Below are positions 1 to 63,230 of a stretch of 64,000 bases of DNA, piece after piece. Positions within the stretch are counted from its first letter, which is position 1. Each line of letters starts with the position of its first letter. The stretch is from NCBI RefSeq assembly GCF_000218685.1, contig NW_006763297.1, forward strand, positions 496,001-560,000, given 5' to 3'. The DNA comes from Serpula lacrymans var. lacrymans S7.9 (Eukaryota > Basidiomycota > Agaricomycetes > Boletales > Serpulaceae). Position numbers and translations under genes: made by a program. The notes under the pieces are model-generated. The model was not told where the DNA came from. It did not search any database and saw only the letters and a program-made list of their open reading frames with translations.

Positions 1-4
1 AAGG

Positions 5-8737: not shown

Positions 8738-8738
8738 G

Positions 8739-11178: not shown

Positions 11179-11183
11179 ACATG

Positions 11184-15531: not shown

Positions 15532-16203
15532 GAAGGATGGCAGGTTGTCTAACGCACTCCTTATCCTTCCGCAATCTCTCTTCTCTCCTCCTCCGTCGTT
15601 CTTTTGTATCTCGGAATTGGTAGCAATCTGTCGCTCTCACAATCCCCTGTATTCTGCTGCCTCCTCCTCCGCTCTTTCTGCTGCTTGGTGGGCCCTCATC
15701 CGTCCCTCTCTTTCTCTTTCGGTTGCTTCCATCACCCTCTTGGCGACTTCTGCTTTGATTATTCTCTGCATCCATTCTTGGATCTCTGGGGTTAGACCGG
15801 CCGGTATCTGTGGTAGTTGGGTCTGGCTTGGTCCAGCTGCTGGCAATGCCTCTGCAAGGTCCAGCATGCTGTCTGTCATTGTGCTTATTGATAGTTCTCT
15901 TTGCCAAAATCGCATGAAATCGACGGAAATTGAGTTCAACAGGTTCGGGTGATTCTTGTTTGATCTGAGGGGTGGGTGAACGTAATGAAACTGATTTGAT
16001 TGATTCTATTTCTGGTGCGTCAAATTTGCAACACCACAGAAATGTATGTGTATAGCCTTGTTCTGTGGCTATCCAATGTTCTAGGTCGTCTCTACGCATA
16101 CACAGGAGTTCACCAATGACAAATTGGATTGATACACCTCTGTGAAGATCGTAGATGCTGTCTTTCTCTTTGATAATCTGGTCCTCTTCTGCCCAGAACT
16201 ATC
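15532..16203 (-). pseudogene. Host gene fragment cut off by E1, product unknown
   Basis: From a possible acceptor (ACGATAG, 16204-16210) an open frame of about 223 codons runs on the - strand into E1 at 15532. It begins FWAEEDQIIKEKDSIYD, continues with LLCMRRDDLEHWIATEQG, and ends in a Ser/Arg-rich, basic stretch. A second frame (15637-15939) from about 15945 on is at least as protein-like (TPEIQEWMQRIIKAEVAKR, an amphipathic helix). Either a one-base shift or an unseen intron separates the two. The rest of the gene would lie left of the window. I do not recognise the family; a gypsy-type gag remnant is possible. Confidence 0.45.
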
Positions 16204-36212: not shown

Positions 36213-37114
36213 GATTTCGTCCGTACTCAAGTTTGACACAATCCATCTACTGTCTGTCCGTTTCGGATCTACTACATACAGTCGGACTTTCTATTTCCAT
36301 TTTCCGCGGCGTTGTCATGCATATGTCGTCTGGCTTTTTTCCAAGCTTTTTTCTTCTTGTTTCGATCGTGGACGTTCTAGTTCTAATTTTACTTGTCGTA
36401 AAGTTACTCGCGTTTTGTGCATGCCGCTCGCTTCACCCGTATTTTCTGCACACTCGCACTCGGGTGATACCGACTTTTTATGAGACTATCTTACATTTAT
36501 TTTGCTTATACTCTGGGTGTACACATACAAACGTTCAATTGAACATTTCATGGCACAAGTTCATGTCCCCGGACAACTCGAATATGATACGAAAAACATA
36601 ATGGAGAACAAGTGGTAGGCTTTTTATTCGGTACAAGTACAAGTACTAGCTATTAGTGCTACTATTGTACATTGTACACGCATTACATATATCGCCTCGC
36701 CACTCTTATTACACATTAGTACAGGGTAAAGCTACGGGTTCATGAGGGTGATAGTGCAAGAAGATGAGGGAATACATGAGTACTACAATACTTGATGCGA
36801 TGCGAGATGAAAAAGAGATCCAAGAAATGATGATGGTGATGGTGATAGTGAATGAATGGGTGATGCATACACTCGCACGTAAGTATGCGCAACATGTATA
36901 ACATACATACCCTTTAACGTAATGTGAATGCCGGATTGGCATTCAGTTACCTAGATCGGTATAGCATTTCGTTGGAGCTAAGCTGCCAAGTAGGAGCATG
37001 GAAACACTAAAAGTGCTGGCGAATGCCGAGGATATAAAGGTAACAGGAAAGGGAAAAAATGCGAACAAGGCGATTTAATCGCGTGTTTTGGACGTGTGTG
37101 ATCTTGAGAGGGGG
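36213..37114. other. Convergent intergenic region, no gene seen
   Basis: Between the 3' ends of the LEA2-like gene and TM-family member M1. A 122-codon frame at 36233-36601 is hydrophobic but has no conserved feature. Confidence 0.6.
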
Positions 37115-37709
37115 TTAACAAATCTCCTCTTCTTCATGAACAGGTAAAATGAGCTCATTGTTGGTCGAAACGAGAGAGGTGATGGATAAATACGAACCTG
37201 TCTCTGTTGCCCCTGTTCTCGCACTCTCAATTCCTTGCAGTCTTCCTATATCCACCCTATGCACGCAACCGCCTAGCGTCGCTGTTTCTGGGTCCTTCAT
37301 TATGGAGTATCTCGGAGGATTGATGTAGGCTGGGGGTGGAGGTTGTATATAGGGCACGGTGGATGATAGACTATCTACCGACACTGCGGGCTCAAAGTAC
37401 AAAGTAGGCAGGGAGTCATTTCGCTGGCTCATCTGGGGCACACGCAGAGGTAAAAGGTAGCTCCTGTCCGAGCAACGCCGGAGGCAACCGGCAGCATGCA
37501 GGGTGACACCGAGGAAAATCACAACCGCCACTGGACAGTGCAAAAATTTTCGGTTAGCACGATGATCACACTGCAAATGTAGCCATTGGTAACGCACGAA
37601 AGACGGCTATGGTGATGAGCACGGTACCCCATCCGGGGAGAGCGTTCGCTGAGGGTGAAGTCCCACCGCTTGGAGACGAAGTGGGCGCGGAAGCCATAGT
37701 ACTCGACAT
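37115..37709 (-). CDS. Small single-pass membrane protein, family member M1
   Basis: Two exons (37709-37598, 37530-37115), 175 aa. Intron 37597-37531 has GTGCGT, CTAAC branch point and CAG, phase 1, and falls inside the membrane span. N-terminus is Ser/Thr/Pro-rich without a signal peptide (MSSTMASAPTSSPSGG); the span is WGTVLITIAVFLAVVIFLG; then Cys/Arg-rich CLRRCSDRS and a tail with PPPPAYINPPRYS and a C-terminal acidic HEEEEIC. Basic residues after the span suggest the tail is cytoplasmic. Shares its plan with M2-M5. Function unknown; PPxAY/PRYS motifs could bind WW-domain ubiquitin ligases (inference). Confidence 0.8.
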
Positions 37710-38054
37710 GGTACGCTTTTCTTTGCTGAACGTTTAGTGTGAGCCTCCGTGGAGAGTGGCCAGCGTGGTCGTAAAGAAAGAAGGTAAGGCGTGTGGGGAA
37801 GAGGGATGATGCTATAAGAGTGGGGGTTTAGTCAGACTTGTAGCGGAACCGGACATAGCTTAAGTACCTACGTGAACGTGATTAGCCGGATTTTCACGAT
37901 AAGTATAAGATAGTCCCAGAAGTAGAGGATAACACATAGCCTCGTTTTATCACATTTCGGCCCTTTCGTAAGTACACAGCTTGGCCTGAGAACGCCAACC
38001 GCTCCCTCAGCCATATAGCCTCGAACTGGAGTCTCGTGAGGTCCTGAAATAGCG

Positions 38055-38460
38055 CTAAGCCCAAGGCAAACGTCGATAGCCCCGTAATGAACGGTTATGG
38101 CGAAAACGTGGAATGGCCAGGCCTGCGGTAAGCGAGACAGGTGTCGTCGTCGCTCCTGTCGTGGAAGTGAATGACAAAAGCACGTATCCCTGATTATTGA
38201 GCAGCGTGTCAGGAGTGCTAGCGACCATCTTTACCTTGGATGACGACGCCCTGAAGACTGTGATGCGGCGTCTACAAGGCTCCACACTCATTGCCGCAGT
38301 CTGAATTTACTTGCACTTACTGAGCGCTCTCAGGAGAGGTGCCACTGGGAGTGGTTGCCACCACGAGGCGTGATCTCATCGCTATGTTTTTGATTCCGAG
38401 ATGAAATAAGTCCGCGTCGGTCCAGATATGTCTCCGCTGAAAAAAACATGACAATGTCGC
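38055..38460 (-). pseudogene. Degenerate relative of the small TM family
   Basis: On the - strand MRSRLVVATTPSGTSPES resembles the Ser/Pro N-terminus of M1, followed by a possible donor GTAAGT and a 78-codon frame (38055-38291) without a clear membrane span. A related segment recurs at about 42200-42800 (shared ATCGCTATGTTTTTG and CCACTGGCACCT). Reading frames do not join, so probably remnants. Confidence 0.35.
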
Positions 38461-39225
38461 GCAGTCCTCAGTTTAGATGCATGATATACAGGGTAAAATA
38501 CAGTGATAATAATAATATAACCACGACGGTCGACCTGCTTTCTATGTATGTGCAATGTTGTATACTCAATTCAAAACTCAATTTACGAATTTTACTGTCA
38601 TTTTCCGTCAAAAATCAGCTGGTACATTTTCTCATGGGGTAAAGTAACGACTTGAAAAATCTCAGTTATGTAGATAAGGATAGTTGGGAGTATATATCAT
38701 TCTGTTCATATATGAGGACATAAACGGCCGAAGAAGAAGAGAAGCTAAAAGTCTATAGGTAATGAACCTGGGGCGTGCCAGCCATGAAGGCTATGTCTGA
38801 AAAAAAAAAAAAAATGAATGATGGACCGAGAGGGCATAAGAAATATTAATGTAAAGGGGGAGCGGGATTCGGTAGGGTTAAAGGGCCAAGAGGCGCCCAG
38901 TGCCAGACTTTGGAGACGTTGCTGTGCTCTGTTCCGAGGGGAATCTCATTCAATCAGAACGTGCCTCAATAACGAGTCTTCAGAACACACTACTGCAAAA
39001 ATGGAACCTTTCCATGAGGCTGTGATCTACAGCGTACAACACGAGTTCTGCGAAAGAAGGGCTGTCGCTAATAAAATACTTGTTCTTCCACTACGATAAA
39101 GATCAAATCCAGTGCCTAGAATAAAACGCGTTAATAGCGCAAAGCTCTGACGGTATTCACGTACCTGTAAGGGACATTAACAGCGCGCCATTTAAAATGA
39201 AGAAATCAAGTCTAGCACCGAGCAT

Positions 39226-39732
39226 TTACGTTCGGCTGGTTGTCACCCCACGCTGAGCGTCTTCGAGGAAGACGGAAGGGCGTGGATCGGCCATGGCATA
39301 TGGAGGGGGACTGGGTTCGAACGTTGGCCTTAGGGTCACAGGGAGCGTGTCAACCCAGGTACCACGTCTCTGGCGCCTGCGCCTGCGCCTCGTAACAGAT
39401 TGAGCTGCAGGCGGCCGGAGAGACGCCAGATCACGGAACGGTCCTGGAACATCATGTCATCGCTGAGCAGACCATAGTTCCACCATGTGCAAGGGACGTA
39501 CTGAATACACGGAGAATCCAGGTGAGCCCCATCCCTGTCTGTTGTACGCGGTGCAGGAAAAATATCATAGACAAGAAACAGACTAAGGAGGAGGAGGGAT
39601 ATATTAGACTGTGGAATGTGCGGCTGGATCGGGTCGCGTACCTAGGCCAAGTATAATGCCTACAATTGTGTTCCACTGAATTTTACTTGTGAGCTGAGTG
39701 ACTGGAGAGGAGACGACCGAGGTGGACGCCAT
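39226..39732 (-). CDS. Small single-pass membrane protein, family member M2
   Basis: Three exons (39732-39642, 39582-39502, 39443-39226), 129 aa, both introns phase 1. N-terminus MASTSVVSSPVTQLTSKIQ; span WNTIVGIILGLVCFLSMIFF; then HRVQQTGMGLTWILR, a run of arginines (TRRRRRRQRR) and a tail with FEPSPPPYAMADPRPS. If intron 2 is kept, the frame ends after 43 more codons, so splicing matters. Intron 1 sits at the same place as in M1, M3, M4 and M5. No known domain. The Arg run and PPPY motif point to a cytoplasmic tail. Confidence 0.75.
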
Positions 39733-42700
39733 GGGCTCGTGCGTTGTATGCTGCGGTAAAGATAAGAGTATGTGCATGAGTACTACGATGGGTGTAAGAC
39801 ACAGAAAAACAAAAGAGTGTGGGCTTTATATTTCACCGACCGGAGTAGATCCAAGTAAACCCAAATCAATCCAACTGTAGATCTAAACAATCAAATTCCC
39901 ACTAACTGACCCTTCACCCCCTCAAGTCGGTGGCACTGCTCATTACGCCTTTGACGGCAGATTGTATCAGTCAGGGTTCTTGATCCTTCTTTGCAAACAG
40001 CATATGGTTTCCGCCATGCTTCATCGGGAAAAGGCAGAGAAGAAAGAAATGGGTGGGAAGGGGAGGGAGTTGATTGAGGCATAACCGGCCCTAAAGCGCA
40101 CACAACAGCGGAAATATGATAAGGAAGCTAGTTACTAATCAATCTGGTCTTGTAAGGTGAAGAGACGCCTTCATGGCTTCCCATGGGCCATTCGTCCTTG
40201 CTCCATTAAACAATGAGGCCGTATAGCAGTCATACGCATGTGGCATTCTGCGTTAAACCAGACGTTCTGCGCAGCAAAAAGAAAGGACGGAAAGCGCGGC
40301 CTTCGAGAACAGTTTTCTCCTCAAAGACAAGGGAATCACCGAGTCCACCAGGCAAGAGGACGGCGTCTCTGTTGCTACGATAGCGTCTACCAACGAAGGC
40401 GCATTAAAGTGGCTCTATGCTGAATTCACAGTCGTTTACCACACTCACCACAACGATTCACTGAGGCAACCTCCTCGGATGAACCAGTTAATTCCAAAAT
40501 ATCAATCCATTTCAAGGCACCGAATCAGATTTCACAAAGTGTGTAAAGATTCTATCTGCTGATCCCGGAGCTTGGCACTGGAGATTGAGGGTAGCACCGA
40601 GGGGAACGGGTTTGTTGTGAGCCTCTGAAGCTCCTCTTCATTGGTTACAGCGTTGTTCAGGCAAACTATTGCGGCCAGTGTTCTTCTTTTGGTCAGTACA
40701 GTAAGTGCCAGAGGTTGGGCCCGAACGACAGAACCTATTTGAGTTTGAGGATGCTGGAGATCATATTCTGTTAGAAAAGCACCCGTCTTAGGGACTTAGA
40801 CGTACGAGGACAGCTTAGGACAGCCCACTTCACAGGATGGATTTTGCTGTATCACCTTGACCGGCGACCCTTTGAGCATTGCCGTGTGACGCTTCTGGCA
40901 AGCACTGAATTAACGGAATTTGGTGCAAGACCTTACGAGGAATCACGGGACATTAACTTGATGCACGGACAACTCTGTACGTTACTGTATGGGGTCAATC
41001 CACAGGAAGCTGAAAGGTTCGTATGGCTCTCCACGCTATTAACTGTGCAAAATGAAGAGTGACCATGCCTGTGCGAAGTAATCAGAGATTCTGTCAGTAA
41101 GTGTAACCATCTGATTTCATTTAGAGTTACGTAATCTGAAGGACTTACGACGTGAGCGTAATTCGTGCGCATGTGGGCGCAATGCGTAGCCCTTGGGCAT
41201 TTCTGGGCGTCTGTTCGGCGTTGAGGTCGGGAAGAACAACAGCGCCTACCCTGGGAACTGGTATTCATTCCGAAATTGAGCTGTCAGGATTGGTTGGTAG
41301 GAGCCGAGAGAAGTGCAGAACACTAGTAATGTGGGAACAGTAAAGAGAACATATCCGATTCAAACATACACATCTAACCCGGACAATTTCGTTTGCTGTT
41401 GAAGAAGTGTGTTGTAGCTGATGGGAAATGGCAGTGTCGTCAATGTAATGAAAACAGATGCATGGCGTAGACCCGTAAAGATGCAAGCTGAGGCGTCTGC
41501 AGGAATCCAGCTGACTCTGAGAAATAATTTCGGAGATCGCTCTTTACTCGAGACAGATGCAGGGAGTATCGTTCGTGGATCCAGAGATCTGGCTCATAGG
41601 GAAGAGATTAGCTATAGCAACTTGATCAGTAGATGCAACAAGTAACAAAAACTACGACAAGTACTCACACTAGCGTCACAGGGAAGTACGCAGTATGATG
41701 CCACAATAAGGATGACAAGATGTGAATCAATCCAAACAAGCTGTATGAGGTTGGTTATGTGAGTAGATAGGCATGAGGTCGAAGATATCTAAGGTACCGC
41801 TAGGGGTACAGCCAACGAGGACTCTTCCTCTTGAGCTACAGTAGTGTCCTTCGGGTTCCAAAAAGTCAAGCCTCGTACTGGAGTATTCCATGATTCTAGG
41901 AGGATTGCGTGACAAAAGTGAGGCAATGAAGGTTGCCAAAAAGTGCTTGTATATCCTGTCATGTTCGCCTGCTGATTGGATGGAAAACATTGAAAGCCAG
42001 TAGGATATCAGAAGCTATCGATGAAAGGTTAGGCGAAAGTTAGTGCTCATGGTGGGAAAACAGTACTTTTCAAGTTGGTTGCCTGACGAGGCAGTACGAC
42101 AGATTGAGAATACCCAGCGTTTGTGCCGTACGTCTACCGGAGAAGTTGCTATCAGTCTCCCTTGTAAATGTGGTTCGAGAAAGGCCAGATGATAGCATAC
42201 TTATGCAAAGATACGCCCTTCGAAAAGGAACTACCATCATGGCCATGTAACAAAAGAAAGGCTAGAACTGCAGTGAATGCGACAGGCATCGTCGCCGCTA
42301 CTGTCGCAGATATGCACATAAAAGAACAAGCGTGTTTATAACAGTAGCGTGCCTGTCAACTGTCATATCAGTAATTTGGTCTGACTGGGGAGACTAGTCA
42401 AAGTTGATGTTGATGAATGAGTATGCAATATCGGCAAATTCCACGCTCACTCCATAGCATGCTTACATCCTTACACTCATGATCAGAAGTACACGTTATG
42501 TTCATGTTCGATCCCGAAATGAACACTTTGCATGTCGGATCAGAAATCCTTCCATAGAACGCAGAGGTAGTGGTCAAAACCAGGAAAACACGTTGCCCAC
42601 CGCTTTTTCAAACACGAGTTTCGCGAGGAATTTGGCTTGGATAACAGGTGGCCCAACTTGAAGGTGACAGCCCATAACCAACGGCGAAGAACAAAAGCAC

Positions 42701-43213
42701 GTTACTGCGATGATTAACCGGGCGTAATTTCCCAGTCACACAAGCAGGTGCCAGTGGTTTAGATGATTAGATTGCAACAATCCGAGTCGCTATGTTTTTG
42801 GTTCCGAATTGGAAATGAAATATAAGAAAGTCCGCGCATACGTAAAGCTTCCAGAATCCACACTGCATACATTCCAGTAAAGTGTAATATACGTACTATA
42901 GTATTCATCGGCACAAAAGGTTCAGACAATACTTCTCATGAGTCAGCCCATATTTATAGAGCTATGATATGCATATCACAGCTACGACGGCTCATCAATC
43001 ATTACTTAACTCTGTGTAAATAAAATACGTGTTATTTCAGCTCATATCGAGCCTAAAATGCTAATCTAAAAAACTAATACTAGCAATGCTCTCGTGCTAT
43101 GGTACCTTCAACATTTACGCTCTCTCATTATAAGACGAGGCATCAACAACAGCGACAACGACAAACTGGATCTAACGTCGAATGATTATGTCGGGACTAG
43201 TCACCGGCTCTCT
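39733..43213. other. Low-density interval with diverged tandem duplications
   Basis: No intact gene recognised. Includes the TM-family-like remnant near 42200-42800 (hydrophobic stretch ATMPVAFTAVLAFLLLHG on the - strand) and a segment at 41480-41710 that recurs at 45430-45660. Short frames at 39891, 40933, 41265 and 41727 show no domain. Confidence 0.5.
41480..41710 (+). repeat. Diverged duplicate of 45430-45660 (~4-kb spacing)
   Basis: Shared order of words such as GCTGAGG.GTCTGCA, TCTTTACTCG, AGACA..CAGGGAGTA, ATCCAG.GA, and CAACAAGT across about 230 bp. With the M2/M3 spacing of 4.0 kb this indicates an old ~4-kb tandem duplication covering the TM-family genes. Confidence 0.6.
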
Positions 43214-43740
43214 TCAAATGTTGTCTCCTTCAAGGAGAAGCTCGATAGGTGGATCAACCACAACACGGGGAGGGGGACCTTGATAGAATGACGAGGCCAT
43301 ATGGAGACGAAGGGACTGAAGCCAAGCGTTCCGTGACAGGCGTTCGCGTCGCACACGTGGTGGAACTGTCGTCCTCTGGGACCGGTAATGAAAGACATTC
43401 GGGCGATGTTCTAAGGTAGAGTTTTGTTAGTGGGGGTTATCGTTCCATTATACAAAAGAAACTCACGTAATAAATGTAAGAAAAACCTGCCCTCCATTCC
43501 TTGCTGTTGCACAAGATACAGATAAAATATTATGGTTAAAAAAGACACTACGTGAAACGTCTTAGTGGAGTGTGGGCATGGATCACCAAATCGTGACTCA
43601 CATAGGACTAGCACGATACCCAATATTGTGAACCACTGTATCTTATTTATGAGCTGAGAGACTGGACTGGATGCAACAGATTTACACCTCGAGCATTCTG
43701 CAGGAGGTGAGATAATGGGCATAAGCATAGTGGGTGCCAT
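43214..43740 (-). CDS. Small single-pass membrane protein, family member M3
   Basis: Three exons (43740-43602, 43547-43467, 43410-43214), 138 aa. Exon 2 is 81 nt, exactly as in M2, and both introns are phase 1. N-terminus contains ECSRCKSVASSPVSQL; span WFTILGIVLVLLSFLTIIFY; then LVQQQGMEGRFFLHLL, as in M2 (VQQTGMGLTWILR); the tail has PPRVRRERLSRNAW and FYQGPPPRVVVDPP. Closest to M2, 4.0 kb away, so probably a tandem duplicate that has diverged strongly in the tail. Function unknown. Confidence 0.75.
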
Positions 43741-46448
43741 GGCATGGGCGCAAAGAAAGAGAACAGACCATTCTTTATACTGCGTGATATGGCTTCATAA
43801 CCGGTGCAGGTCTATCATAGATTTCCATTTAATAAGCCCAATCTGGCCCCTGATCAGTGTCGGTTTGTCGGTAACAACACGTTGGAGAACATGAGGCTTG
43901 TGCGCATGCCAATGTCACGGGACTCGGCGCCTAATCCAGTTCTTTATTAAGAATATATAAGATAATATACAGACTTGCTTATTGCAGCAATGAGCCGGAC
44001 GACTGGCGATCAAAAAACATGGGTGAACGGCTAAGAAGTGGCCAAAGACACTAGATTTCATTTGGGTTTTGAACACAACAGTAAGTTGTACCCTGGTGCA
44101 CATGTCAATATTATGAGAAGTCGATAAGGGAGCTAACGGTGGTTGTTCATTGCGTGATCGAGATGAGCCTAATCCTGTATGGTAGACGGATAGCTTCTCG
44201 TAAAACGATGGAAATCGGGAATCCATCGGGCAAGTTAGCGTCTCTGGGAATGTCCACAGTAACATCCAACGGTGTACATCTTCTTATCAATGGTCACTGA
44301 TGAACTGATTTACTGCGGGAACTCATGGAGTAACACCCATGGTGAAGTCATTAATTACGAGTCGAAGGCCAGTTCCACAAAAGAATATGGTACCGAACTC
44401 TACGTTTAATTTGCTGGGCCGGGCAAGCGCTGGTGCTTGTGCATACTATTATTGATGGCAGTCCTGTGGCAGAATTCTAAAGCACCTGCAGGCCTGCAGG
44501 CTAGTTGCGCTGTCGGTGTTGCTCAGTGAGGTGCAGTGCAAATTCTCCAGAATGTACAAGTTTCTGGGTCGGGTCAAAGGGCCGGCTCCAGAAGGCATGT
44601 TGTGTCAGAACCACTCCTTTTCTATGGACCAGGGACATAGTACGACAGCCACTTCATAAAAGACGGGTTCAATAGATGCTGTAAAGCTGCGGAAGGCTAC
44701 GTGAATGACGACCTTGAGCCGCTGTGTTTGTCAAGGCCTGCATCAGTGGGGATTGCGCGAGACCTTGTAGGGATTACAGGGCTGTGGCTTGACACGCGGA
44801 TAGCATCCGCTGCCCAAACACTGACGTTTAGGGTGATTCCACGGAAGGGAAATGAAAGCTCTATAAGCCTCTGTTCGTTACCAAAGCACTGTGCACGGTG
44901 AAGAACCTTGTGTTTTTCAGGGTAGCATTGAATGGATGATGTGTCCATTTGATGTCAGTAGACTCGTGTGTGATGCCCACAGAAATGAGTAGGATTTGAT
45001 GCGGATGTGTCGGGATATATAGGTAAATGGCTGGGCCATTTCTCAGCGTGCGTTGGGGATATACACGTGTTCTTTCACCGAGGAATGGGAGGCTTAGAAC
45101 ATGCTTTGGAATTCGAAGCTCCTATGAAATATCGGGCAACCAGAATTGGCTAGTACCTGTAGGGGCTGGAACAAAGTACTCCATCCTGATCCAACGACAC
45201 TGATTTTGTTCAGGATTTGGATATGGAATTACGACAATCGGATATCGTTGTGGATCAACCTATAAAGCACATGGAGGGCATACCAGATCAAAGATTGTTG
45301 TGTAAAATGCTTTGGGAGTGACTGAGGGAGGGAGCAGCTGCGGTTCGGTCATGTTTGAGTATATAGATTTATATACGGCCCGAGCGCTTTAACTTGCTGT
45401 AAAGTGGATAGAGACACGACACGACATTGTAAAGGTGAGAGCTGAGGTGTCTGCATGATTCCAGTGGTCTCTGGCTATTTTGAGAAGACATGGTTCTTTA
45501 CTCGGGAGAGACACAGGGAGTACGGTTCGCGAATCCAGTGACCTGATTCATGAAGGCAGGCCTAGCTGCAGTAATCTGGTCAGTTGACGCAACAAGTGAA
45601 AAATGGTGACAAATTTTCACACTGGTATCACAGAGAAACATGCCGTATGATGAAAGACATTTTAGGGTGGGACCAAAAAGGGCGACGACGCACGAAGTGT
45701 ATGGTAAAACTTGAAGAAGACCGCGTATGATGTTGACGTTGTGGTAAGTGGCCTTGAGTGGCATCAATAAGGTTTCTGGGCGCCAGTTTGATGCTCATGG
45801 TGGGAGGATAGCGCCTCTTCCCCCCTCAACTTGTGCGCCTAGCTGATGGGTGTCATATTGCAAATATCTTGAGCCTGTATGCAGCTGTAGTATGGGGTAC
45901 GTCTGCTAGAAAAATTGCTATTCATACGCGTATACAATTTGAAGGAATAGCTTACTTATTCCTTTACAAATATCTACCATGTTATGTTCAAGCTGTTATT
46001 GCGTTTGCAACACTGTGCTTGGAGGATACTGCAAGTATTTGGCAGCGACCACTCGGAGGTTAGCTCTACTTGGTAGCGGGCGAAGGCTGTGCAATTGTAT
46101 TTCCGCCCAGTCCGCGCCGCCCCAATACCATTTATGCAGTGGTTTATCTCTAAAACATATATAGATTTTGATAGAGCTCACATTGTCAGAGAAAATCAAA
46201 GGTACCATAGCCCATAGTCCACAATACAATGAGTGTTGTGATTTAGTCATACTACATCTACGTCAATGTGGAAGGGTATCATTACGACTTGAAAGAGACG
46301 TGATTAAGTGCAGGGAAGAGCCACATTGGCCACAAGAGTATGGTGTGTGCAAGCTCAAAAATCTATTTGCACAATGCAGGCATGTCAAAAGAAAAATATT
46401 TCCGGACCTAACACTGAACAGTTAGGGTGTACTGGCTACCATCCTACT
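43741..46448. other. Low-density interval, no gene seen
   Basis: Contains the diverged duplicate of 41480-41710 at 45430-45660. Small frames (43915-44265, 44697-44948, 45498-45767, all on the - strand) have no recognised feature. Confidence 0.5.
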
Positions 46449-47014
46449 TCAAGCTCCCTCTTCGGGGTTCGGAGGAACTCGAGGATAAGGATCGGCCACA
46501 GAATAGCGAGGAAGGTTTTCGTTGTATGAGGGCGCCGGAGTCAGAGGAATCTGCGACTCAGCCCTCGTCCCCACGCTCTGGGGCGCAGACCCACACCCCG
46601 TTTGAGTTGCGGACGGCTGGGATATGTCTGTCTCTGTCCCTCTGGATAAACGAAGAAATGTTGAGAGACGGTTAAGGGACTGTTCTGGTAGCGTCTGATT
46701 ATGGTGTGAATTGTTATCCCGGCAATCGCAGGACGTACTTAAAATGTGGAAGAACCAATGGAGCCCCCTTCCTTCCTGTTCCCAGAAGCGGTAATAAAAT
46801 AGTACAGAAAAAAAACAGTCTGTAGGGAAGTTGTCAGCAAACCGTAGGTCATCATTGCTAGATCTGGTTCACTTAAGCCTAGCACGATTCCAACAACCGT
46901 CTTCCACTGCACTTTCTCGGTGGCGTGAGCATCTGGAGTGGACGACAAACACTCGGACAATATGAGCACGGACGTTGAGCGTCCTAGTAAAGACTGGAGC
47001 ACGGGCATACGCAT
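46449..47014 (-). CDS. Small single-pass membrane protein, family member M4
   Basis: Two exons (47014-46873, 46819-46449), 170 aa; intron 46872-46820 is phase 1, at the family position. N-terminus is Ser/Leu-rich and ends HATEKVQ; span WKTVVGIVLGLNCFFSVLFY; then RFWEQEGRGLHWFFHILSTS, matching M2 (GLTWILRVFSTS). The tail reads through the place where M2 and M3 have intron 2 and ends PLTPAPSYNENLPRYSVADP, like M1 (PPPAYINPPRYS). This links the two halves of the family. An alternative splice at a GTACGT after HIL would end the protein early. Confidence 0.72.
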
Positions 47015-48874
47015 ATTGGGTGGAAAACGTCAGATAAATCATCTTTTTTAATTTTTTATATAGTCACCTGGGTGCCTACTCAGCCGCAATAAACCCAAGG
47101 AACTGGACAGGTACATAGTAAGTGGAAATTCATACTCAAGCACCATGGCATATCGGGGGATTGGGATGAGAGGGTCCATCTCAATATTCTCGTAAGGAAC
47201 CTAAATGAATGGCTGTGCTATCTTGTCCTGAGAACTGTGAGCTTGGAGAGACCTGTGTGGCCCAAGCTTGGGTGGAGTGCAGATGCAGATACCAGTGCCA
47301 GTGGGTTAGGCTGTGGTTGATAGCCACCGAACGAGTTTAAAAGGAGATCATCGCTGAAATAGAACACTGCTTTCTGGGAAAGCTCACAATAGGGCACACA
47401 TAACAACGGCTTAGATAAATTACTATCAAACTTCGGGTTGATAACCACTGATAAGACTTACTGCAAGAGCTGCGTGTTTAACAAAGAGGCTTATTCCTAA
47501 AAGCGTTCTTCGGGTGGGCAACGGGCGCATGTCCTGGGTCTTGTGTTGTGCCAGTGGAAACTCGGTTTAGCCGAACGCCAGACGTTGGCGCTAGAAAGCG
47601 AGCGCTATAAGGAAGACATCTCGATGGGAGATATCGCAGTTCTCTTAAATCTAGTCCGACACGCACGGCCTGCCGCCGTCAATAATCCCTTGGAATCGTT
47701 CCAGAAGTTGAGTTGATTGGCGGCCCTCAATCTGAAATACTGGGTACAATCTAGCCAATATCACGCCTGCCCGACTGCTGGGAGCTCGGCATAGCCTCTG
47801 AAACGATTCTGCCCCGTCTTGTCATGCAGGAAAGGTCCTTTCGCGAGGTAACAGGAATGTAGGCAATTATCTCCTTACAGTCATGCGAGTAAGAACTTCC
47901 CATTGAAGTCGTGCCAACTCCCAGGAAGAGCCGAACTGACGGGAGATAGTTGTTTTACAGTGACGCCAGCACCATCCGACGATGTCGGCCCACTCCAACG
48001 AGGACCCAGCTGGAGAACCACAATTGGTAGTGAAGGTAGTAAAGGGTTCGTCTCGTTGCTAAGACACCCACACGCGATGCAGTGGAAGGAGCCCCCTACA
48101 TTTTGGCATTTCTCTTCAGAGTAAAATGCTCATCTAGGACATGAGACGTTTCATGGATTTTAATGCGAAAACTTGCTATGTTCAGCGGAGTAAATACACA
48201 GACGTCGAGATTTGCCGTAGATCTTCGCGCCAACAGTATACCGCCAGTTCTGTTTTCCGTGAACGTAATGTAATGCCGGAGCAGAAATACACTTCTTCGA
48301 AATCAGTCCCTCATGAGATCTCAGGGATCATCAGGATGAATGAATTATATCATGATGGAGGTCCACAAAGACGTCCAATACAGGTAACCTGTAATCCATC
48401 CTGAACCACTCTGAAAGCGGATCTTAACGCGGTGCTTCACTCAATAGCTGCGATTGAGCTTGCACAGTTGCCATCGAACCCGTGGAAGGTCATGAAAATA
48501 TGATGGTGGGGGATAAATCAAGAGGGGTGATCCAAAAAAAATTCAAAGTGCTTTAGAGCGTGGCAGTGGCGTGGGGACAGGGATATTTTGAAGTATATGC
48601 AAGCCCGGCTCTGCAGGTTGCGCAAGTGCCGCACACGGAGTATAGCCACTCTTAGGCCGTTTGACTGCGCGGAGGCATTGTTGATGCTATGACTCCTGGG
48701 TATAGGCGATGTTGCGAAAGTTCAATGGAAGGATAGTAGGTTTATTGCAGGGGGTGGAGATGATATGTAAACATAGTGCTCGAAGACCAAGCGAAGACCA
48801 CACATGAATCGAAGACAAAGGACCGCAGTTTTGTTCATTGACAAGCTATCATTGCTAAATCAACGGTTTAAAAC
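47015..48874. other. Gene-poor interval, no gene seen
   Basis: Frames at 47903-48124 and 48141-48404 (+) and 47478-47666 (-) show no domain or membrane span. No RNA gene recognised. Confidence 0.5.
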
Positions 48875-50239
48875 TCAAACTCTGCGTTCCCTACGGAAGG
48901 CCCTTTCCCAAAGTGCGATTCGATCAAGGAGTGCGTTAACATTAGCTTCACTGAAAACGGATGGTGGGCAGCTGCCAGGCCTATACGCGTGTGAAGACCT
49001 GTGCCACACGATTTCATCTACACGAGTCAGGAATTGCATGGCATGTGTGATATTGCCAGCCACGTCGTCTTCCGAAAAAGCGGGGGCAAGCTGCGATTCG
49101 ACATTCCTATACGAAGACAGAAACGACGATGGAATGGAAAGCTCCTTGAATAGAACCTAACCGAATATACTAAGCTTCTATAGTTCAGTTACTATCAGCC
49201 GCACTTACCGCAAGAGTTCGCTTGGCATCGTTCTCTGAAAGGCTCGCTATTTCTGGACCAAAAGGCGGCTCTGTAGGCGGAGAAGATATGATATCCGTAG
49301 AGCAACACGTGTCTTCTATTCTTTCATAGGGAGGTTGCATATCATGCGCTTGAGGAGGGTCTTTTGACAGGAGCGCCTGTAGCTTCTCATATTGCGCTCG
49401 TAGATCATCGGTCTCCGCTCTTGCAGCCAACAAAGCCTGATTTAAGGGTGTAAACTCCAGAGGTTTCGTTAACCAAGCAGGGTCGAGCTGTGCATGCTAG
49501 TGAGTAACTGCTGATGAGTGATGAAAGACGATGGATGCTCTACCTACATTACAGTTCACGGGATGGGTGTTTGATTCTGCGGCCTATGTTCACAAGAAGT
49601 TGGGAGGGTAACAACGAGAAGCGCGCATCACACACCTTCGGGAGCTGCTTTGAGCAAAAAGTGAACTAGACATGAGACGCTAAATTCATTGTATATGGTG
49701 AAAACTTACGAGGACTCCATGGACATCGGGTTGAGCGGTGGGGGGCAGATCAGCACAGGGAAACAGGCTCACGGATGGCTTTCCGGATAGCGCGACATCT
49801 GAGAGACGGGACAGCAATGGAGCCTCGAGCACTTCCAATGTAGGGTTGCTAGGACCCTGAGGATGTGATATCAGCTTATGCACTTCATCATTTGGATATT
49901 GTATTGGGGATAGAAGATGGATCGTAAAGAAGATAGACATACTACCAATGGCGTGGATGCTACCAGATTGAGATCCTGTGCAACCACGGGTTCTGTGATC
50001 TTACGAGATGTAGCCGTCGAGAGATTACGATTCTTGGTGGAGAAAAAAGAACGGATCTTCTCAAAGTCAAGTCTCCCATCAGAGTCTCTGAGATCGCGAG
50101 GATTTGACTGGGGAGAGCTGAGGCGAATGTCTTCCAGAATATCATCAGATGCGAGCAGATCGATCAGAGCTTCAAATGATTCATTGGGACCACGATCTAG
50201 GAATTGTTGATTGTGGGTATCATGTGTGCTATCCGTCAT
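48875..50239 (-). CDS. Unknown protein with heptad-like helix, six exons
   Basis: Six exons, every intron phase 0: 50239-49943, 49856-49710, 49647-49636, 49583-49548, 49496-49209, 49156-48875; 353 aa. Exons 3 and 4 are tiny (12 nt encoding QLPK; 36 nt). Starts MTDSTHDTHNQQFLDRG; has an acidic helix SFEALIDLLASDDILEDIR; a likely coiled coil ALLAARAETDDLRAQYEKLQ; and a helical C-terminus FLTRVDEIVWHRS ... LLDRIALWERAFRRE. No signal peptide or membrane span. I do not recognise the family; the arrangement could suit a structural or complex-scaffold protein. The dense consistent frame across five introns makes it a real gene. Confidence 0.78.
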
Positions 50240-51114
50240 ACAGTGACTTTTCAGCATATAAAAACAAATAGCTACCAATGTTCGGCGAGGGGAAGCGAAA
50301 CGTCGAGGGTAAGTGCTTCCGTGAGAGCGGATCCATTTTGAGCCTCGCGCCGTGAGTTATATTTTGAAACTCAGCTTTGTTACATTTAATATTCGCTGTC
50401 TGTTCGGCGAACTTCGGCCTTGTGATGAAGCAGTCGCAGAGCTAAGGAGAACGATAGCCAGTGACGATATGGTAAAACAAGAAAGCCAATGAGATACAGA
50501 AAAGCATGTGATGACCGTTACGAGACGATGTATGAGAATCTAGTGTATAAATATGGACCTACACGTATTTATTAAGACGCGGCAACGTAGCCGATAGGCC
50601 TATAGTAGGTACATAGAATCTTATCAGGATAATGAGAATACATAAATTTGACAGATAAATATAATTGCCATTGGAGGAGGGTCCCACTAGGCTTGGACAT
50701 TCTGGACGACTCTTCTCCATTAACACTGATTATCGACGATTGATGTACTCCGTCAGAGTGTCCCCTTACCATAAGGCTACAGTCGCAGAAGGAAACATTT
50801 TGACGGTGAGCGGATAAATTCTCTGCATCACAAGGTGGACGAACGTGTCAAACAGAAACAAGCGCCAGAGAACAGGGGAGAAAATGTGAAATTGCTAGTG
50901 TTTGATGCGACTGCGGAAGATGTCCTTGAGACTTACGTTACAATTGCACTCGATACCACGAAGGGTGAAACCCACGCCTTGATCTTGATATTACAGCACT
51001 CTTCTACGACCCGGAACTAATGGAAACTCGAGATCTTCCACTCAGCCGGTTATCACCCCATTATCCATCATCAATGGCCGCTGCATAAGGAACAAATCAC
51101 ATTGAGGGTCCACA
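50240..51114. other. Intergenic, no gene seen
   Basis: Promoter side of the gene at 48875-50239 and the 3' side of M5. Small frames only. Confidence 0.5.
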
Positions 51115-51571
51115 TCAGTATCTGCGCAAGGTGGTCTGCCCGGTCAATGGTCGATGTTGGGGTGGAAAGAAAGGGGGTGTGTGTTCGTCCCGTCGCTTTC
51201 TCAACGTGCATCTGAGTTCTTCCATCATCGGCAGCCGCGCCAATAGCGACTCTGCTCTCGTAAACCATTGAGCGCGAAGCCTTGTATACCATTCTGGTAT
51301 AACTTCCCTGGCCAATGAATGTGTCGTTATGCAACCAAGTACAAAGAACGTACCAAATATACAGACAAAGCCCCTGGCTCGTAGGTGCAGATAGTATAGG
51401 ACAAGCGAAAGAGCGGCTGGAAGGGGATTTAGAAACGTAGTTGTCCACAACGGTGTAAGACTCACCTAATCCGAGTAAGATGGCAATGATGGCTGACCAT
51501 CGTATCGGCCTGCTGGAATGGGCGGACACAGCAGATGTCAAGTGGTCTGGGGGAGATGAAAGTATAGACAT
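51115..51571 (-). CDS. Small single-pass membrane protein, family member M5
   Basis: Three exons (51571-51466, 51416-51354, 51293-51115), 115 aa, both introns phase 1. N-terminus SSPPDHLTSAVSAHSSRP; span WSAIIAILLGLAALSLVLYY; then LHLRARGF and a basic tail (LRCTLRKRRDEHTPPFFPP) ending TTLRRY. Acceptor of exon 3 is the ATACCAG at 51294-51300; the alternative AAG a few bases on breaks the frame. Most diverged of the five but with the same intron position and Trp at the membrane border. Confidence 0.7.
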
Positions 51572-52934
51572 TACAAGATAAAGGAGAAATGGAAAGGAAA
51601 GGGGACTTGAGGAGTTATTTTATAGAGCATCGCAAATCCAGTCAGCATTGTTCCATGCACGCCTGAAAAGAATGGGCTCTTGGACGACAAGTTCCGATCC
51701 GCCGAATGATTCGAGATGACTGTTCATCGACCTTCCAACCGTTTTGTCTGGGGCATTTACATCCAAAGCAAGGAATACTTACCGTAGTGATGGTGACGTT
51801 ATATTTTCAGCCTTCGTAGTATGGCGTGTACGATCATATAGAAAGAAGAGCGAGAGTGAAAATGCGCCAAGACAGCACTCATTGTATTCCACAGTCAACG
51901 AGAATAGCATCGGAGAGCTGCAGCGCTTATGACATTATGTCCCAGCCCTGTTGGTGCACTGGTAATGGGGGTGTTCCGGGGTGAGACGACTAAACAGCGC
52001 ATGAACGTGTGCTTCCCTGAGTAGAAGGAATATACAGTCCAGAAAACGAGTACCTGTGTTAGAAATGGAACAGCACAGCAGCGTCAGATCTGTCAAAATA
52101 AATTCATAGAAGAACAATCCAATACAAGATTGGAAGGACAAAGTATGAAGGTGGGCCACATCTACGTCAACAGGAGTGCCTAGAAGTCAATGGTTCAGTA
52201 CACTCCAATGCTGTGGGGATGTGAGAGTATCGCGGACCTGGGGGAAAACCACAATCACAAATAAGTCACTTTCCAAAAATGGGGGTGATAGGCTCGAGGA
52301 GTCCGGAAACATACAGTAGAGAAAAAGTCAACAGTCCATCGGAGTTACTGATTATTTATTAACTATTTGGATTCGAGCTCTTTGTGATATTCCGCATTTT
52401 GAGGGCTTCACCTGATGAGTTTTGCGTGCATATAAATACAGATCAGGGCAAGGCTAAAATAACCCCGGGCCTGGCCATTTTCATCAACTGCATCACCACA
52501 GAAATCCTCGGAGAGCTCGTTTCAACTTAGGCTCGGACGTATTTGAGTCTGCTTTGGGTGACCTTTTGCATCAATAGGGGGATTAGAGGCCAGATACAGC
52601 GTCAAAGCCGCGCTGTGGTGGATGGCTAGTTGAAGTAAGAGTAAGGACTAGCTAACCGTTGACTTGCCAGTGGAACCTCTTGACTGACCATATAGAGACA
52701 GTGTGGCGCCGACCTTAGAGCCGCTCTATCATGATCCTCAGCAAGTTCAGTGAAATCCTTCCTACGATATGTACTAGTACTTGGGTTGCGCAAGGAAAAA
52801 TGAATAACTCGCTACTAAACTGTGGTATCAAACAGGGTGTCTGCTGATGCGTCGAAGGATTCTGTTTCTGGCTGCCCAGCCATAGCGCTCATTTGCCCGG
52901 GCCATCACACGATCTGGAGGCTAACAGGTAAGCA
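51572..52934. other. Intergenic, no sure gene
   Basis: A 74-codon - frame (51935-52159) has a hydrophobic stretch (IGLFFYEFILTDLTLLCC) and could be a remnant of another TM-family gene. The right part is the 5' flank of the tetraspanin. Confidence 0.4.
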
Positions 52935-59594: not shown

Positions 59595-59897
59595 GTGACA
59601 AAACTGGATGAACCCAGTCTCTGCTAAAGCAGTGATTGTTCTCCATGGAGTCACCATTGTTCTCCTAGGAGTCATTATACTGTAGCGAGGAGCACCTCTG
59701 ACTATAACTAGTATGGGGGTTTAGTATAGAAATACCTCAGTTGTTTCTATAGCCTCTCGGGCAGCGGCTGAGGTATGTTACATTACATTTATTAGAGATC
59801 ACCTTAAACTAACATCTATTGTAGTTTCACTTAGGTAAATAATAAAGTCGTTTCTATAGCCTCTTGGGCAGCGGCTGAGTTTCACTTAGATTTATTA
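59595..59897 (+). repeat. E4 5' LTR
   Basis: 303 bp, starting TGACAAAACTGG and ending GATTTATTA, so TG..TA termini as in E2. It matches the LTR at 62909-63230 in inverted orientation. Confidence 0.85.
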
Positions 59898-59909
59898 GGT
59901 TATGAGCCC
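59898..59909 (+). promoter_or_regulatory. E4 primer-binding site, half-tRNA-iMet type
   Basis: GGTTATGAGCCC abuts the LTR, the same anticodon-arm complement as in E1 and E2. Confidence 0.75.
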
Positions 59910-59967
59910 AAGTGGCGAAAAAGCTACGCAGGAAATAATTCTCATTTGAAACGGCAACCTCAAAACC

Positions 59968-60576
59968 ATAACCACAGCACACGATACATCCGCATGTCCA
60001 GTTCTCACTGGACCCAACAATTGCCAGATATGGAAACTCCGGATCATCTCAAAGCTACATCAGGAAAAAGTTCTCCGAGTTGTTACTGGAGAGGAGCTTA
60101 AGCCCTCACCAGGAAAGCCCTCACCAGGAAAGTTCACTTCTTCAGAGGATCCTGAAATCACCTGGATACTTAAGGATGAGAAGGCACATGGAATCATCCA
60201 GGACCACATCTCTGATGCCCTCCTAATAAGGACTGGAGACCTCACCAGCTCCAAGGAGTTATTTGACAAACTTGTTTCACTCCATCAGACGTCCAACATT
60301 GCCTCAGCCTTCTATTCATTCCAGCAACTCACCAAATTGTCCTGGGATGGGACATCACCTATCCAGGACCACATTGTGAAAATCCGGACAATTGATTCAC
60401 ACCTCTCCGGAATGAAACTAGGAGTTGATACCAAACTCATGGCCTTCACTCTTCTCCAATCTCTCCCATGCACTCCTGAATGGCAAATATTTCAGTCATC
60501 GGTAGTCAACACGATTGAAGAAAATAAACTTACCTTTGATGCAGTTGAGATCCGGATCACTGCAGAAGTTGCATGA
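59968..60576 (+). pseudogene. E4 gag fragment, start codon lost
   Basis: Open frame from ATA 59968 (ATG in E5) to TGA 60574-60576, about 200 codons: TTAHDTSACPVLTGPNN, TWILKDEKAHGIIQDH, ASAFYSFQQLTKLSWDG, SLPCTPEWQIFQSS. It matches E5 gag closely and has a 15-bp tandem duplication (CCCTCACCAGGAAAG). The stop at EVA-TGA is shared with E5 and probably derives from CGA. Confidence 0.85.
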
Positions 60577-60658
60577 CAGGGGCAATACCTCTGTGGAGAC
60601 GTTCCGAGAGCAGTGGGAGCACCTGATCAGCTAAGACACCCTCCACAACAGTCTGTAC

Positions 60659-60683: not shown

Positions 60684-62838
60684 ACTTGCTTTCCATGTGT
60701 GAGCCAATCATTATGGCTTTGCGCCCCTTGGAGTAAAACTTCCCTTGCCTTTTGTCTTTCGGAATCAAGGCATATGCTTGGCATCTGAAAGGGCAAAACA
60801 AAGTTGGATCAACTCTCCTTTTAAACAGTATTTCATATGGGGTCTTTCCATGGAGTCCTGATGCTGGGCTGCGTGCTGTGATATATGCAGCTGTTTGCAT
60901 GGCATCTACCCAAAATGACTTTGGGAGCTTGGAATCATGGAGCATAGTGGTTGCTCATGTAGCCAATGTCTGATTCATGCGTTCTGCAATGCCATTTTGT
61001 TCCGGAATATCTGCAGCTGTAGTTTTTTGGATGACACCATCTTCTCGGAGTTGAATTTTGAATGCATTGCCAGTATATTCTCCTCCCCCATTGCTCTGGA
61101 GGAATTCGGTGTACAGTGGAGTGAAGTTTTCTTCTCCCAAATGAGTCCAGAAGAATGTTTGGACATCTTCTTTCCATTGCTTGTATCGTTCCAGTGCTTC
61201 ACTTTTATGTTTTAGGAAATATATCCATGGAAATTTGGAGAAATCATCTACAATGATAATCCAGTACCGGAAATCCTCCCTGGAGGTTGGTTTGATTGGT
61301 CCTCCAACATCTGTGTGCACAATTTGTATGGGGCGCTTGGCTCGGTTTCCTCTAGTGAACTTGAAAGGTGATTTCTTCATCTTTCCTAAAGCACAAGGTT
61401 CACAAAACTCCGGGGTTCTGGTAAGGGTGTCTATGTCCTGGAGCTGTCCTTTTGTAACCATTCGTTGCAAGTGGTCCATTCCAATGTGTCCCATTCTTTT
61501 GTGCAATAAATTTACATCTACTGCTGCAAAAGCTGACTCCGGGTTGATTTCAGGTTTTGCTTGGATGTGATAACGTCCTCACTTGTGTAAGGCAGTGAGG
61601 ATAAGTTCCTTCTTTTTCCGAACTTCACAAGCATTTGACCCTGCTGGAAAAAGTGTTAATAACCCCGTTTTAGACAATTTGTGGACAGAGACAAGTGCTA
61701 AAGTGAAGTTTGGCACAAGTAAAATATTTGACAGTGCAATATTGTAGTCCCTTTTGCCAACAGTTGCTTGTAGGATTACTGTTCCAATTCCAATGGCATT
61801 TACAGAGGGTTCATCCCCAAAACTGATTGTCCTCGGAGGATGCAGAACATGGTATGTTCCTGGCTCAAACCAGAAGCGGTGAGGGACCATGTGGGATGTT
61901 GCTCCGGAGTCAACAATGATTGTTGTTTTGGTCTTAACAGGTTCCGACACAAGGTAAGCTTGAATGTGTTTAGCAAGGGGCTTGGAAATATGTACATGTT
62001 CCAATGCAATATGACTCTGTTCCTCCTTGGAGTCAGATCCAGATGATTGCTCCACCATATTTGCCTTTTCCTTCTCTTTTACTTTATCCTTGTGTTTCTC
62101 CTTTCCCTTCTTCTTTTGACCTTTTCCAGCTGATTGAAATGTTTGACACCCCGAGGTGTTGTGTGATTTGACTTTGTGGAAGTCACACCACTTCTCCTTG
62201 GACTTGAGTGCTGATTTGGAACCCCCAGGGGCCTTTCCTGACTGTCATGCAACTTCTGCAGTGATCCGGATCTCAACTGCATCAAAGGTAAGTTTATTTT
62301 CTTCAATTGTGTTGATTACTGATGACTGAAATATTTGCCATTCAGGAGTGCATGGGAGAGATTGGAGAAGAGTGAAGGCCATGAGTTTGGTATCAACTCC
62401 TAGTTTCATTCCGGAGAGGTGTGAATCAATTGTCCGGATTTTCACAATGTGGTCCTGGATAGGTGATGTCCCATCCCAGGACAATTTGGTGAGTTGCTGG
62501 AATGAATAGAAGGCCGAGGCAATGTTGGACGTCTGATGGAGTGAAACAAGTTTGTCAAATAACTCCTTGGAGCTGGTGAGGTCTCCAGTCCTCATTAGGA
62601 GGGCATCAGAGATGTGGTCCTGGATGATTCCATGTGCCTTCTCATCCTTAAGTATCCAGGTGATTTCAGGATCCTCTGAAGAAGTGGGCTTTCCTGATGA
62701 GGGCTTAAGCTCCTCTCTAGTAACAACTCGGAGAACTTTTTCCGGATGTAGCTTTGAGATGATCCGGAGTTTCCATATTTGAAAATTGTTGGGTCCAGTG
62801 AGAACTGGACATGCGGATGTATCGTGTGCTGTGGTCAT
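60684..62838 (-). pseudogene. E5 gag-protease-integrase with several stops
   Basis: Starts ATG 62838 (MTTAHDTSACPVLTGPNN). Gag body; TGA at 62245-62247; zinc-like CDFHKVKSHNTSGC (CX2HX4HX4C, a variant with His for the second Cys); protease VDSGATSHMV; TGA after LTALHK; integrase HKRMGH ... CEPC, HTDVGG, QSNGGGEY (Asp of this motif is Asn) and NGIAERMNQ; TGA after TLAT; then PKSFWVDAMQTAAY. At least three stops stand where CGA is expected. The product is dead. Confidence 0.85.
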
Positions 62839-62896
62839 GATTCCGAGGTTGCCGTTTTAAATGAGAATTATTTTCTGCGTAGCTTTTTTGCCACCA

Positions 62897-62908
62897 GGGC
62901 TTATAACC
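62897..62908 (-). promoter_or_regulatory. E5 primer-binding site, mutated
   Basis: On the - strand GGTTATAAGCCC abuts the LTR; it differs from the E1, E2 and E4 sites by one G-to-A change at the base pairing with the anticodon. Confidence 0.7.
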
Positions 62909-63230
62909 TAATAAATCTAAGTGAAACTCAGCCGCTGCCCGAGAGGCTATAGAAATGACTTTATTATTTACCTAAGTGAAACTACAATAGATGTTAGTTT
63001 AAGGTGATCTCTAATAAGTGTAATGTAACATACCTCAGCCACTGCCCGAGAGGCTATAGAAACAACTGAGGTATTTCTATACTAAACCCCCTACTACTTA
63101 TAGTCAGAGGTGCTCCTCGCTACAGTATAATGACTCCTAGGAGAACAATGGTGACTCCATAGAGTGATGGCTATACACCATGGAGAACAATGGCTGCTTT
63201 GGCAGAGACCGGGTTTATCCGGTTTTGTCA
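62909..63230 (-). repeat. E5 5' LTR
   Basis: 322 bp, matching E4's LTR with a short extra segment near 63155-63180 and several changes, many of the CG-to-TG/CA type. Confidence 0.85.

What the first reader, a model, noticed from the sequence alone, without database searches (positions are those of the whole stretch)
37115..51571. Undescribed family of five small single-pass membrane proteins sharing one intron inside the membrane span
Seen: M1-M5, 115-175 aa, all on the - strand. Each has a Ser/Thr-rich N-terminus with no signal peptide, a Trp at the start of the span (WGTVL, WNTIV, WFTIL, WKTVV, WSAII), a phase-1 intron at the same point of the span, and a basic then Pro-rich tail with PPPAY / PPPYA / APSYNENLPRYS motifs. 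M2 and M3 also share an 81-nt exon 2. The soluble parts are nearly unalignable, which suggests fast or diversifying evolution. I recognise no known family. They lie near receptor genes and could be surface, self-recognition or WW-domain adaptor proteins; all inference.
Basis: partly seen in the sequence, partly recalled or inferred. Interest (0 to 1): 0.75.

Follow-up and report, generated by a model that had tools for sequence, protein, structure and literature searches.

The report
Orphan membrane-protein cluster in dry-rot fungus
A row of four related genes, plus a probable fifth, in the dry-rot fungus encodes small membrane proteins seen in no other species searched; some carry a short motif that in yeast and animals recruits a ubiquitin ligase to sort membrane proteins, but what they do is not known.

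Summary
M2, M3 and M4 share an indel-free 142-nt core with an 81-nt exon 2; silent sites of the core changed more often than replacement sites in two of three pairs. The public annotation holds M2 with this exact model, and M4 and M5 with other introns. M1 is not significantly similar in sequence but has the same plan and intron place (11 residues after the Trp, phase 1); a scan of 264 kb found that plan nowhere else. No relatives were found outside S. lacrymans or elsewhere in its genome, within limited sensitivity. L/PPxY motifs occur in M1, M2 and M4 (shuffle P 0.001), not in M3 or M5. The genome has two triple-WW proteins, the likely partners. Best reading: fast-evolving, species-restricted membrane adaptors of Nedd4/Rsp5 ligases, working like Commissureless, Rcr1/2 or Sna3 without being members. 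Diversifying selection, self-recognition and a receptor link are not supported. Splicing and expression are untested; codon usage gives no coding signal.

The parts
37115..37709 (-). M1: exons 37709-37598 and 37530-37115, 175 aa; span W27 onward; PPAY and PPRY motifs; no 81-nt exon
   Evidence: not homologous by sequence, shares plan and intron place; no protein found in the database
39226..39732 (-). M2: exons 39732-39642, 39582-39502, 39443-39226, 129 aa; PPPY motif
   Evidence: identical to public protein SERLA73DRAFT_74199 (P0001); TATAAA at -98
43214..43740 (-). M3: exons 43740-43602, 43547-43467, 43410-43214, 138 aa; tail PPPRVV, no PY motif
   Evidence: not found as an annotated protein; TATAAA at -39
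46449..47014 (-). M4: exons 47014-46873, 46819-46739, 46684-46449, 152 aa; APSYNENLPRYS tail, LPRY motif
   Evidence: public models SERLADRAFT_438848 (170 aa, intron 2 kept) and SERLA73DRAFT_74200 (133 aa, other introns); TATAAA at -46
51115..51571 (-). M5: exons 51571-51466, 51416-51354, 51293-51115, 115 aa; tail TPPFFPP, no PY motif
   Evidence: public model SERLA73DRAFT_169051 (118 aa) fits an acceptor 9 nt upstream at intron 2; TATAAA at -53
41444..41700 (-). spacer copy, 68-70% identical to 45398-45652; no frame open in both, probably a non-coding remnant of the tandem duplication
45398..45652 (-). spacer copy matching 41444-41700
   Evidence: a genome search with 41400-41760 found only itself and missed this known copy, so it says nothing about divergent copies elsewhere
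38111..38212 (-). spacer copy, 67% identical to 42256-42355
42256..42355 (-). spacer copy matching 38111-38212

Best explanation
A tandem array of rapidly evolving genes found only in S. lacrymans so far. It encodes small single-pass membrane proteins: a short N-terminus with little net charge (probably outside or lumenal), one helix starting at Trp, and a disordered basic then proline-rich cytosolic tail. In M1, M2 and M4 the tail offers L/PPxY motifs to the WW domains of a Nedd4/Rsp5-type ubiquitin ligase. The protein would thereby bring the ligase to the membrane, so that it and its helix-bound partners are ubiquitylated and sorted to endosomes and vacuole. M3 and M5 have lost or never had the motif and would be inactive, competing or degenerating copies. 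Shown: the open frames and plan, the M2-M5 family, fewer replacement than silent changes per site in the core for two of three pairs, the motif excess, triple-WW proteins in the genome. Inferred: transcription and splicing, topology, WW binding, sorting function and any cargo.
For: M2-M5 homology: no scored decoy (930-997 per test) reached the real protein. Exon/intron plan. The last 61 nt of exon 1 plus exon 2 (142 nt) have no indel among M2, M3 and M4 while the introns differ in length. In the core, M2/M3 differ at 18.5 of 28.5 silent sites against 28.5 of 100.5 replacement sites (Fisher p 0.0007 on counts cut to whole numbers), M2/M4 p 0.009. TATA box 39-98 nt upstream of 4 of 5 ATGs (150 nt searched); 7% of 100-bp windows of the region hold one. 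AlphaFold model of M2 from three sequences: one helix 20-46, mean pLDDT above 90 for residues 21-40, below 60 from residue 51 on. L/PPxY in 3 of 5 tails; 25 of 20000 shuffles give 3 or more members. The genome has two proteins with three WW domains, each with HECT-like ORFs beside them (HECT by eye). Precedents: Sna3 (PMC2171029, abstract and opening); Comm, PRRG4, Rcr1/2 (PMC5578492, passages).
Against: M3 and M5 have no PY motif. The M3/M4 core does not show the silent-site excess (p 0.38). Codon usage gives no positive coding signal: M1-M5 score -0.064 to -0.009 against 0.026 to 0.077 for 7 of 8 control ORFs (the STE3 exon scored -0.033); the frames of M3 and M5 are not the best of their six; 227 to 713 of 1000 spacer chunks score as well. 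No homologue outside the species. No expression data. The charge bias next to the helix is weak in M3 and M4. The motif was noticed before it was tested.
Confidence: 0.38

Rival explanations
1. Orphan single-pass proteins whose PY motifs are incidental to proline-rich tails. The function is at the surface (cell-wall or stress-related, or no selected function beyond keeping the span) and the array is young and turning over.
For: 2 of 5 have no motif; weak coding signature; the span and exon 2 are better kept than the rest; no homologues elsewhere.
Against: Motif excess over shuffled tails, P 0.001, though the motif was chosen after reading the sequences.
Confidence: 0.36
2. Receptor-partner proteins: they assist or down-regulate the non-mating STE3-like receptors beside them.
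For: Four STE3-like units lie on the same strand in the window, the nearest match 9.6 kb from M1. In yeast, Ste3 surface level depends on Rsp5 and on PPxY adaptors of another type (PMC4712785, passages), though there PPxY-less adaptors still worked in one pathway.
Against: Four other STE3 places on C8 (447, 466, 759, 777 kb) have no M-like gene in the fetched DNA (396-496, 560-630, 755-785 kb). Genome searches with each of the five proteins found no copy near another receptor, but they also miss M5-like divergence. A SUN-domain gene lies between.
Confidence: 0.1
3. Self- or partner-recognition surface proteins under diversifying selection.
For: Divergent tails and N-termini between paralogues; a 14-codon N-terminal stretch of M2/M4 has pN above pS.
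Against: pN below pS in all 6 core and 6 tail comparisons and 5 of 6 N-terminal ones; P0001 and P0004 are each one sequence on two contigs, apparently S7.3 and S7.9; N-termini are only 19-36 residues.
Confidence: 0.06
4. Not genes: duplicated non-coding DNA with chance open frames.
For: Codon usage close to background; one pair of spacer copies is more similar (70%) than the gene copies (59-61%); competing public models; M1 and M3 found in no annotation.
Against: Indel-free core, silent-site excess in two of three pairs, matching splice sites, TATA boxes.
Confidence: 0.1

Closest known systems
Commissureless / PRRG4 (animals)
   Same: Short single-pass protein with L/PPxY motifs in the tail; for Comm, remarkably low conservation outside the motifs (PMC5578492, passages)
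   Different: No direct sequence comparison was made; the extended GLPSYDEAL motif is absent; PRRG has a Gla domain
Yeast Rcr1/Rcr2 (Pfam RCR, PF12273)
   Same: Fungal proteins of similar build with PPSY and VPEY motifs; Rcr1 binds Rsp5 (PMC5578492, passages)
   Different: RCR profile not listed for M1-M5 at E up to 1
Yeast Sna3
   Same: Membrane protein with a PPxY motif that binds Rsp5 WW domains and follows the multivesicular-body route (PMC2171029, abstract and opening)
   Different: Sna3 has two spans and is a conserved protein (both recalled); no direct comparison made
SKG6 / Mid2-like single-pass fungal proteins
   Same: Ser/Thr-rich N-terminus, one span, basic juxtamembrane stretch (recalled)
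   Different: No such Pfam match for M1-M5; the SKG6 genome search rang nowhere, controls included, so it says nothing

Membership tests
One family M2-M5 | significant sequence similarity | tested here: met
   no decoy at or above the real score for each of M2-M5 (997, 995, 930, 993 scored of 999 made)
One family M2-M5 | shared intron place and phase | tested here: met
   W+11, phase 1 in 4 of 4 (and M1); second phase-1 intron in 4 of 4; predicted, not seen in RNA
M1 as a fifth member | significant sequence similarity | tested here: not met
   404 of 924 scored decoys at or above; pairwise 28-340 of 500 shuffles at or above
M1 as a fifth member | same plan and intron place | tested here: met
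   plan scan: the 5 known and no other in 264 kb, 0 in the reversed sequence; thresholds were set on the five
RCR (PF12273) | match to the family profile | tested here: not met
   not listed at E up to 1; the one sub-threshold genome match lies far from the cluster in a 179-aa frame that looks like an exon of another protein
Nedd4/Rsp5 adaptors | L/PPxY motif | tested here: inconclusive
   present in 3 of 5
Nedd4/Rsp5 adaptors | binding to WW domains and ubiquitylation of cargo | not testable with these tools
   candidate partners exist
Commissureless/PRRG | extended LPSYDEAL-type motif | tested here: not met
   the L/PPxY motifs found are PPAY, PPRY, PPPY and LPRY; read against the sequences by eye
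MAT B genes | location at the pheromone/receptor locus | tested here: not met
   MAT B of S7.9 is on scaffold 3, 2697701-2719838 (PMC3564976, passages), matching C3 STE3 hits; the window is on C8
Pheromone precursors | CaaX end | tested here: not met
   the CaaX scan of the window (unspliced ORFs of 25-120 aa) lists none in 37-52 kb; the spliced M1-M5 ends are not CaaX
Diversifying surface proteins | excess of amino-acid changes | tested here: not met
   pN below pS in 6 of 6 core and 6 of 6 tail pairs, 5 of 6 N-terminal; silent sites are near saturation

The most novel reading that the evidence does not exclude
A species-restricted set of Commissureless-like membrane adaptors that arose next to an expanded set of non-mating STE3 receptors and decides, through the Nedd4 ligases, which receptors stay on the hyphal surface. 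The copies without a motif act as competitors, and the phase-1/phase-1 exon that carries half of the span lets splicing (in M2, M4 and M5, where skipping keeps the frame) make an unanchored form.
Probability: 0.05. Interest if true: 0.75.

Novelty: new member of a known kind. Interest (0 to 1): 0.33.

Why it matters
If the adaptor reading is right, a wood-decay fungus built its own ubiquitin-ligase membrane adaptors, much as insects did with Commissureless, with a tail that keeps only a short motif while the rest drifts. It would give a small, deletable cluster for studying how orphan genes plug into conserved sorting machinery. If wrong, it is one more lineage-specific gene array.

Tried and rejected
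MAT B membership: rejected, other contig. Pheromone genes: none in the M region by a CaaX scan of unspliced ORFs. Rfam (36500-52400) and tRNA (window): none. RCR and SKG6 genome searches: one RCR sub-threshold hit in a 179-aa frame with a span and an APPSY tail, not an RCR gene by eye; SKG6 uninformative. The C4 hit of M1 (E 0.98) lies in a 329-aa frame that looks unrelated. Repeated spacers as hidden genes: by eye no long frame open in both copies; the genome search with one spacer missed its own known copy, so it is no control for rarity. Codon-usage test: no positive signal for M1-M5. Exon skipping: keeps frame in M2, M4, M5, makes a stop in M3. Intron and flank identity by global alignment with shuffles: scores no better than shuffles, penalties too loose; not used. 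Fold search not run because the model has mean pLDDT 58. The first version of the decoy test stopped with an error and was repeated. Literature: listings (15 of 444 listed; 12 of 47 listed); passages of PMC3564976, PMC5473757, PMC8161036, PMC5578492, PMC4712785; abstract and opening of PMC2171029. None of what I saw describes these genes.
Full report
WHERE IT IS. The window is C8:496001-560000 of a 42.6-Mb genome. The cluster's proteins match only Serpula lacrymans S7.3 and S7.9 entries, and the genome's STE3 matches on C3 (2698-2717 kb) fall at the published MAT B place of S7.9, scaffold 3, 2697701-2719838 (PMC3564976, passages). So this is the dry-rot fungus, and the window is not MAT B.

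THE GENES. Hand-made models give 175, 129, 138, 152 and 115 aa, with GT-AG introns of 49-67 nt. In all five the first intron splits the codon 11 residues after the Trp that opens the span, in phase 1. M2, M3 and M4 have an 81-nt exon 2 and M5 a 63-nt one, each between phase-1 introns; M1 has one intron only. The public annotation holds M2 with the same 129 residues. It holds M4 twice with other introns (one copy keeps intron 2, the other uses different introns) and M5 in a form that fits an acceptor 9 nt upstream; M1 and M3 were not found. Intron 2 of M4 and M5 and intron 1 of M3 can be read through in frame, so splicing there is open.

ARE THEY ONE FAMILY? M2-M5, yes. Profiles built from three members score the fourth at 99.1, 68.3, 56.6 and 19.5 bits (M2, M3, M4, M5); none of 997, 995, 930 and 993 scored decoys reaches that, out of 999 segment-wise shuffles made for each. 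Units of M2, M3 and M4, flanks included, align at about 56% over 696-809 columns, and spacer pieces at 67-70%, which points to tandem duplication in units of about 3.3-4 kb. M1 is not significantly similar (-0.3 bits; 404 of 924 scored decoys as good). What ties it in is the plan. A scan for Trp, ten hydrophobic residues, a phase-1 donor, an intron of 45-80 nt and more hydrophobic residues found the five M genes and nothing else in 264 kb (the window plus 200 kb of C8), and nothing in the reversed sequence. The thresholds were set on the five, so only the zeros are informative.

ARE THEY GENES? For: no indel in the 142-nt core of M2, M3 and M4 while the introns change length; in the core, silent sites changed more often than replacement sites for M2/M3 (Fisher p 0.0007) and M2/M4 (p 0.009) but not significantly for M3/M4 (p 0.38) (replacement changes are still the more numerous in absolute count); a TATA box 39-98 nt before 4 of 5 ATGs, none before M1, with 7% of 100-bp windows in the region holding one (150 nt were searched per gene). 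Against: codon usage is no better than background (-0.064 to -0.009, controls 0.026 to 0.077 in 7 of 8, the STE3 exon -0.033); for M3 and M5 another frame scores higher; and 227-713 of 1000 spacer chunks score as well. The test separates poorly on short genes. RNA evidence is missing.

WHO ELSE HAS THEM? Two profile searches of 5.8 billion proteins returned four S. lacrymans entries and nothing else at E up to 10 (7995 candidates scored, a capped list; 7800). M1 returned none (239 candidates). The search needs shared exact words, so very distant relatives or unannotated DNA would be missed. In the own genome, searches with each of the five proteins found only the cluster, apart from a chance C4 hit of M1. 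Sensitivity is limited here too: M2 finds M3 and M4 but not M5, and M5 and M1 find no other member. No Pfam family over its cut-off, no PDB chain for the M2-M5 profile, and no paper of the held library with the three locus names searched.

HOW IT MAY WORK. Each protein has one strong hydrophobic stretch. For M2 AlphaFold, from only three sequences, gives one helix 20-46 with mean pLDDT above 90 for residues 21-40, and a mostly unstructured tail. N-termini are 19-36 residues with little net charge, and Arg/Lys follow the span, more clearly in M1, M2 and M5 than in M3 and M4, so tail-in is likely but inferred. Tails hold PPAY and PPRY (M1), PPPY (M2) and LPRY (M4); shuffled tails reach three carriers in 25 of 20000 trials and four motifs in 0.005%. 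The genome has 12 WW matches in 8 places; two of them, at C8:1435.7-1436.1 kb and C11:267.5-268.1 kb, have three WW domains each, followed by ORFs that read like HECT (HECT named by eye). In yeast the PPxY of Sna3 binds Rsp5 and is needed for its sorting to endosomes (PMC2171029, abstract and opening). In animals Commissureless and PRRG4, and in yeast Rcr1, are short membrane proteins with L/PPxY-type motifs, and Comm is poorly conserved outside them (PMC5578492, passages). I therefore favour a ligase-adaptor role, at 0.38, just above the rival of an orphan array whose motifs are incidental (0.36). M3 and M5 without a motif are the main difficulty.

THE RECEPTOR LINK. The genome has at least 118 STE3 exon matches, which I group by eye into about 37 places, five of them MAT B. 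Four lie in tandem in the window at about 17.1-28.3 kb, the nearest match 9.6 kb from M1. Four other places on C8 lie in fetched DNA and have no M-like gene there; the best non-cluster profile E-value in the 264 kb was 0.11. Neighbourhood alone is thus a weak clue.

SELECTION. Between paralogues pN is below pS in every core and tail comparison and in 5 of 6 N-terminal ones; the 14-codon N-terminal stretch of M2/M4 goes the other way. N-terminal and tail alignments were guided by protein, and silent sites are near saturation. This fits purifying selection on the span and relaxed constraint outside it, not diversifying selection.

VERDICT. It is interesting as an orphan array, modest as a discovery.

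Noticed in passing
[quoted passage not shown] four tandem copies 3.2-3.5 kb apart (about 75-85% identical) in the window. The passages of PMC3564976 seen here describe only the five at MAT B.
   Followed up: partly
window 5785-7454: Minisatellite of about 1.7 kb with periods of 21-314 nt built on TGGGATCATCCCATC / TGGGATTTTCCCAGA, overlapping a 250-aa open frame at 6520-7272.
   Followed up: no
window 41444-41700 and 45398-45652: Spacer copies are more similar (68-70%) than the gene copies beside them (56-61%), with many transition differences; no shared frame or Rfam family found. The genome search with one copy missed the other.
   Followed up: partly
window 59596-60579 and 62242-63230: Inverted repeat of about 1 kb, 93% identical, with adjoining open frames; probably a mobile element.
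   Followed up: no
window 1-15532: Copia-type retroelement sequence: pol ORFs of 1089 and 1342 aa and a gag ORF of 361 aa; 4-356 and 15180-15532 are 99.7% identical.
   Followed up: no
L047 and L048: Two separate triple-WW, Rsp5-like proteins in one fungal genome, where budding yeast has a single Nedd4-subfamily ligase (PMC2171029).
   Followed up: partly
L046:1000-1800: A 179-aa open frame with a span and an APPSY tail, perhaps the end of a membrane-bound aspartic protease (named from memory): another PY-like tail on a membrane protein in this genome.
   Followed up: no
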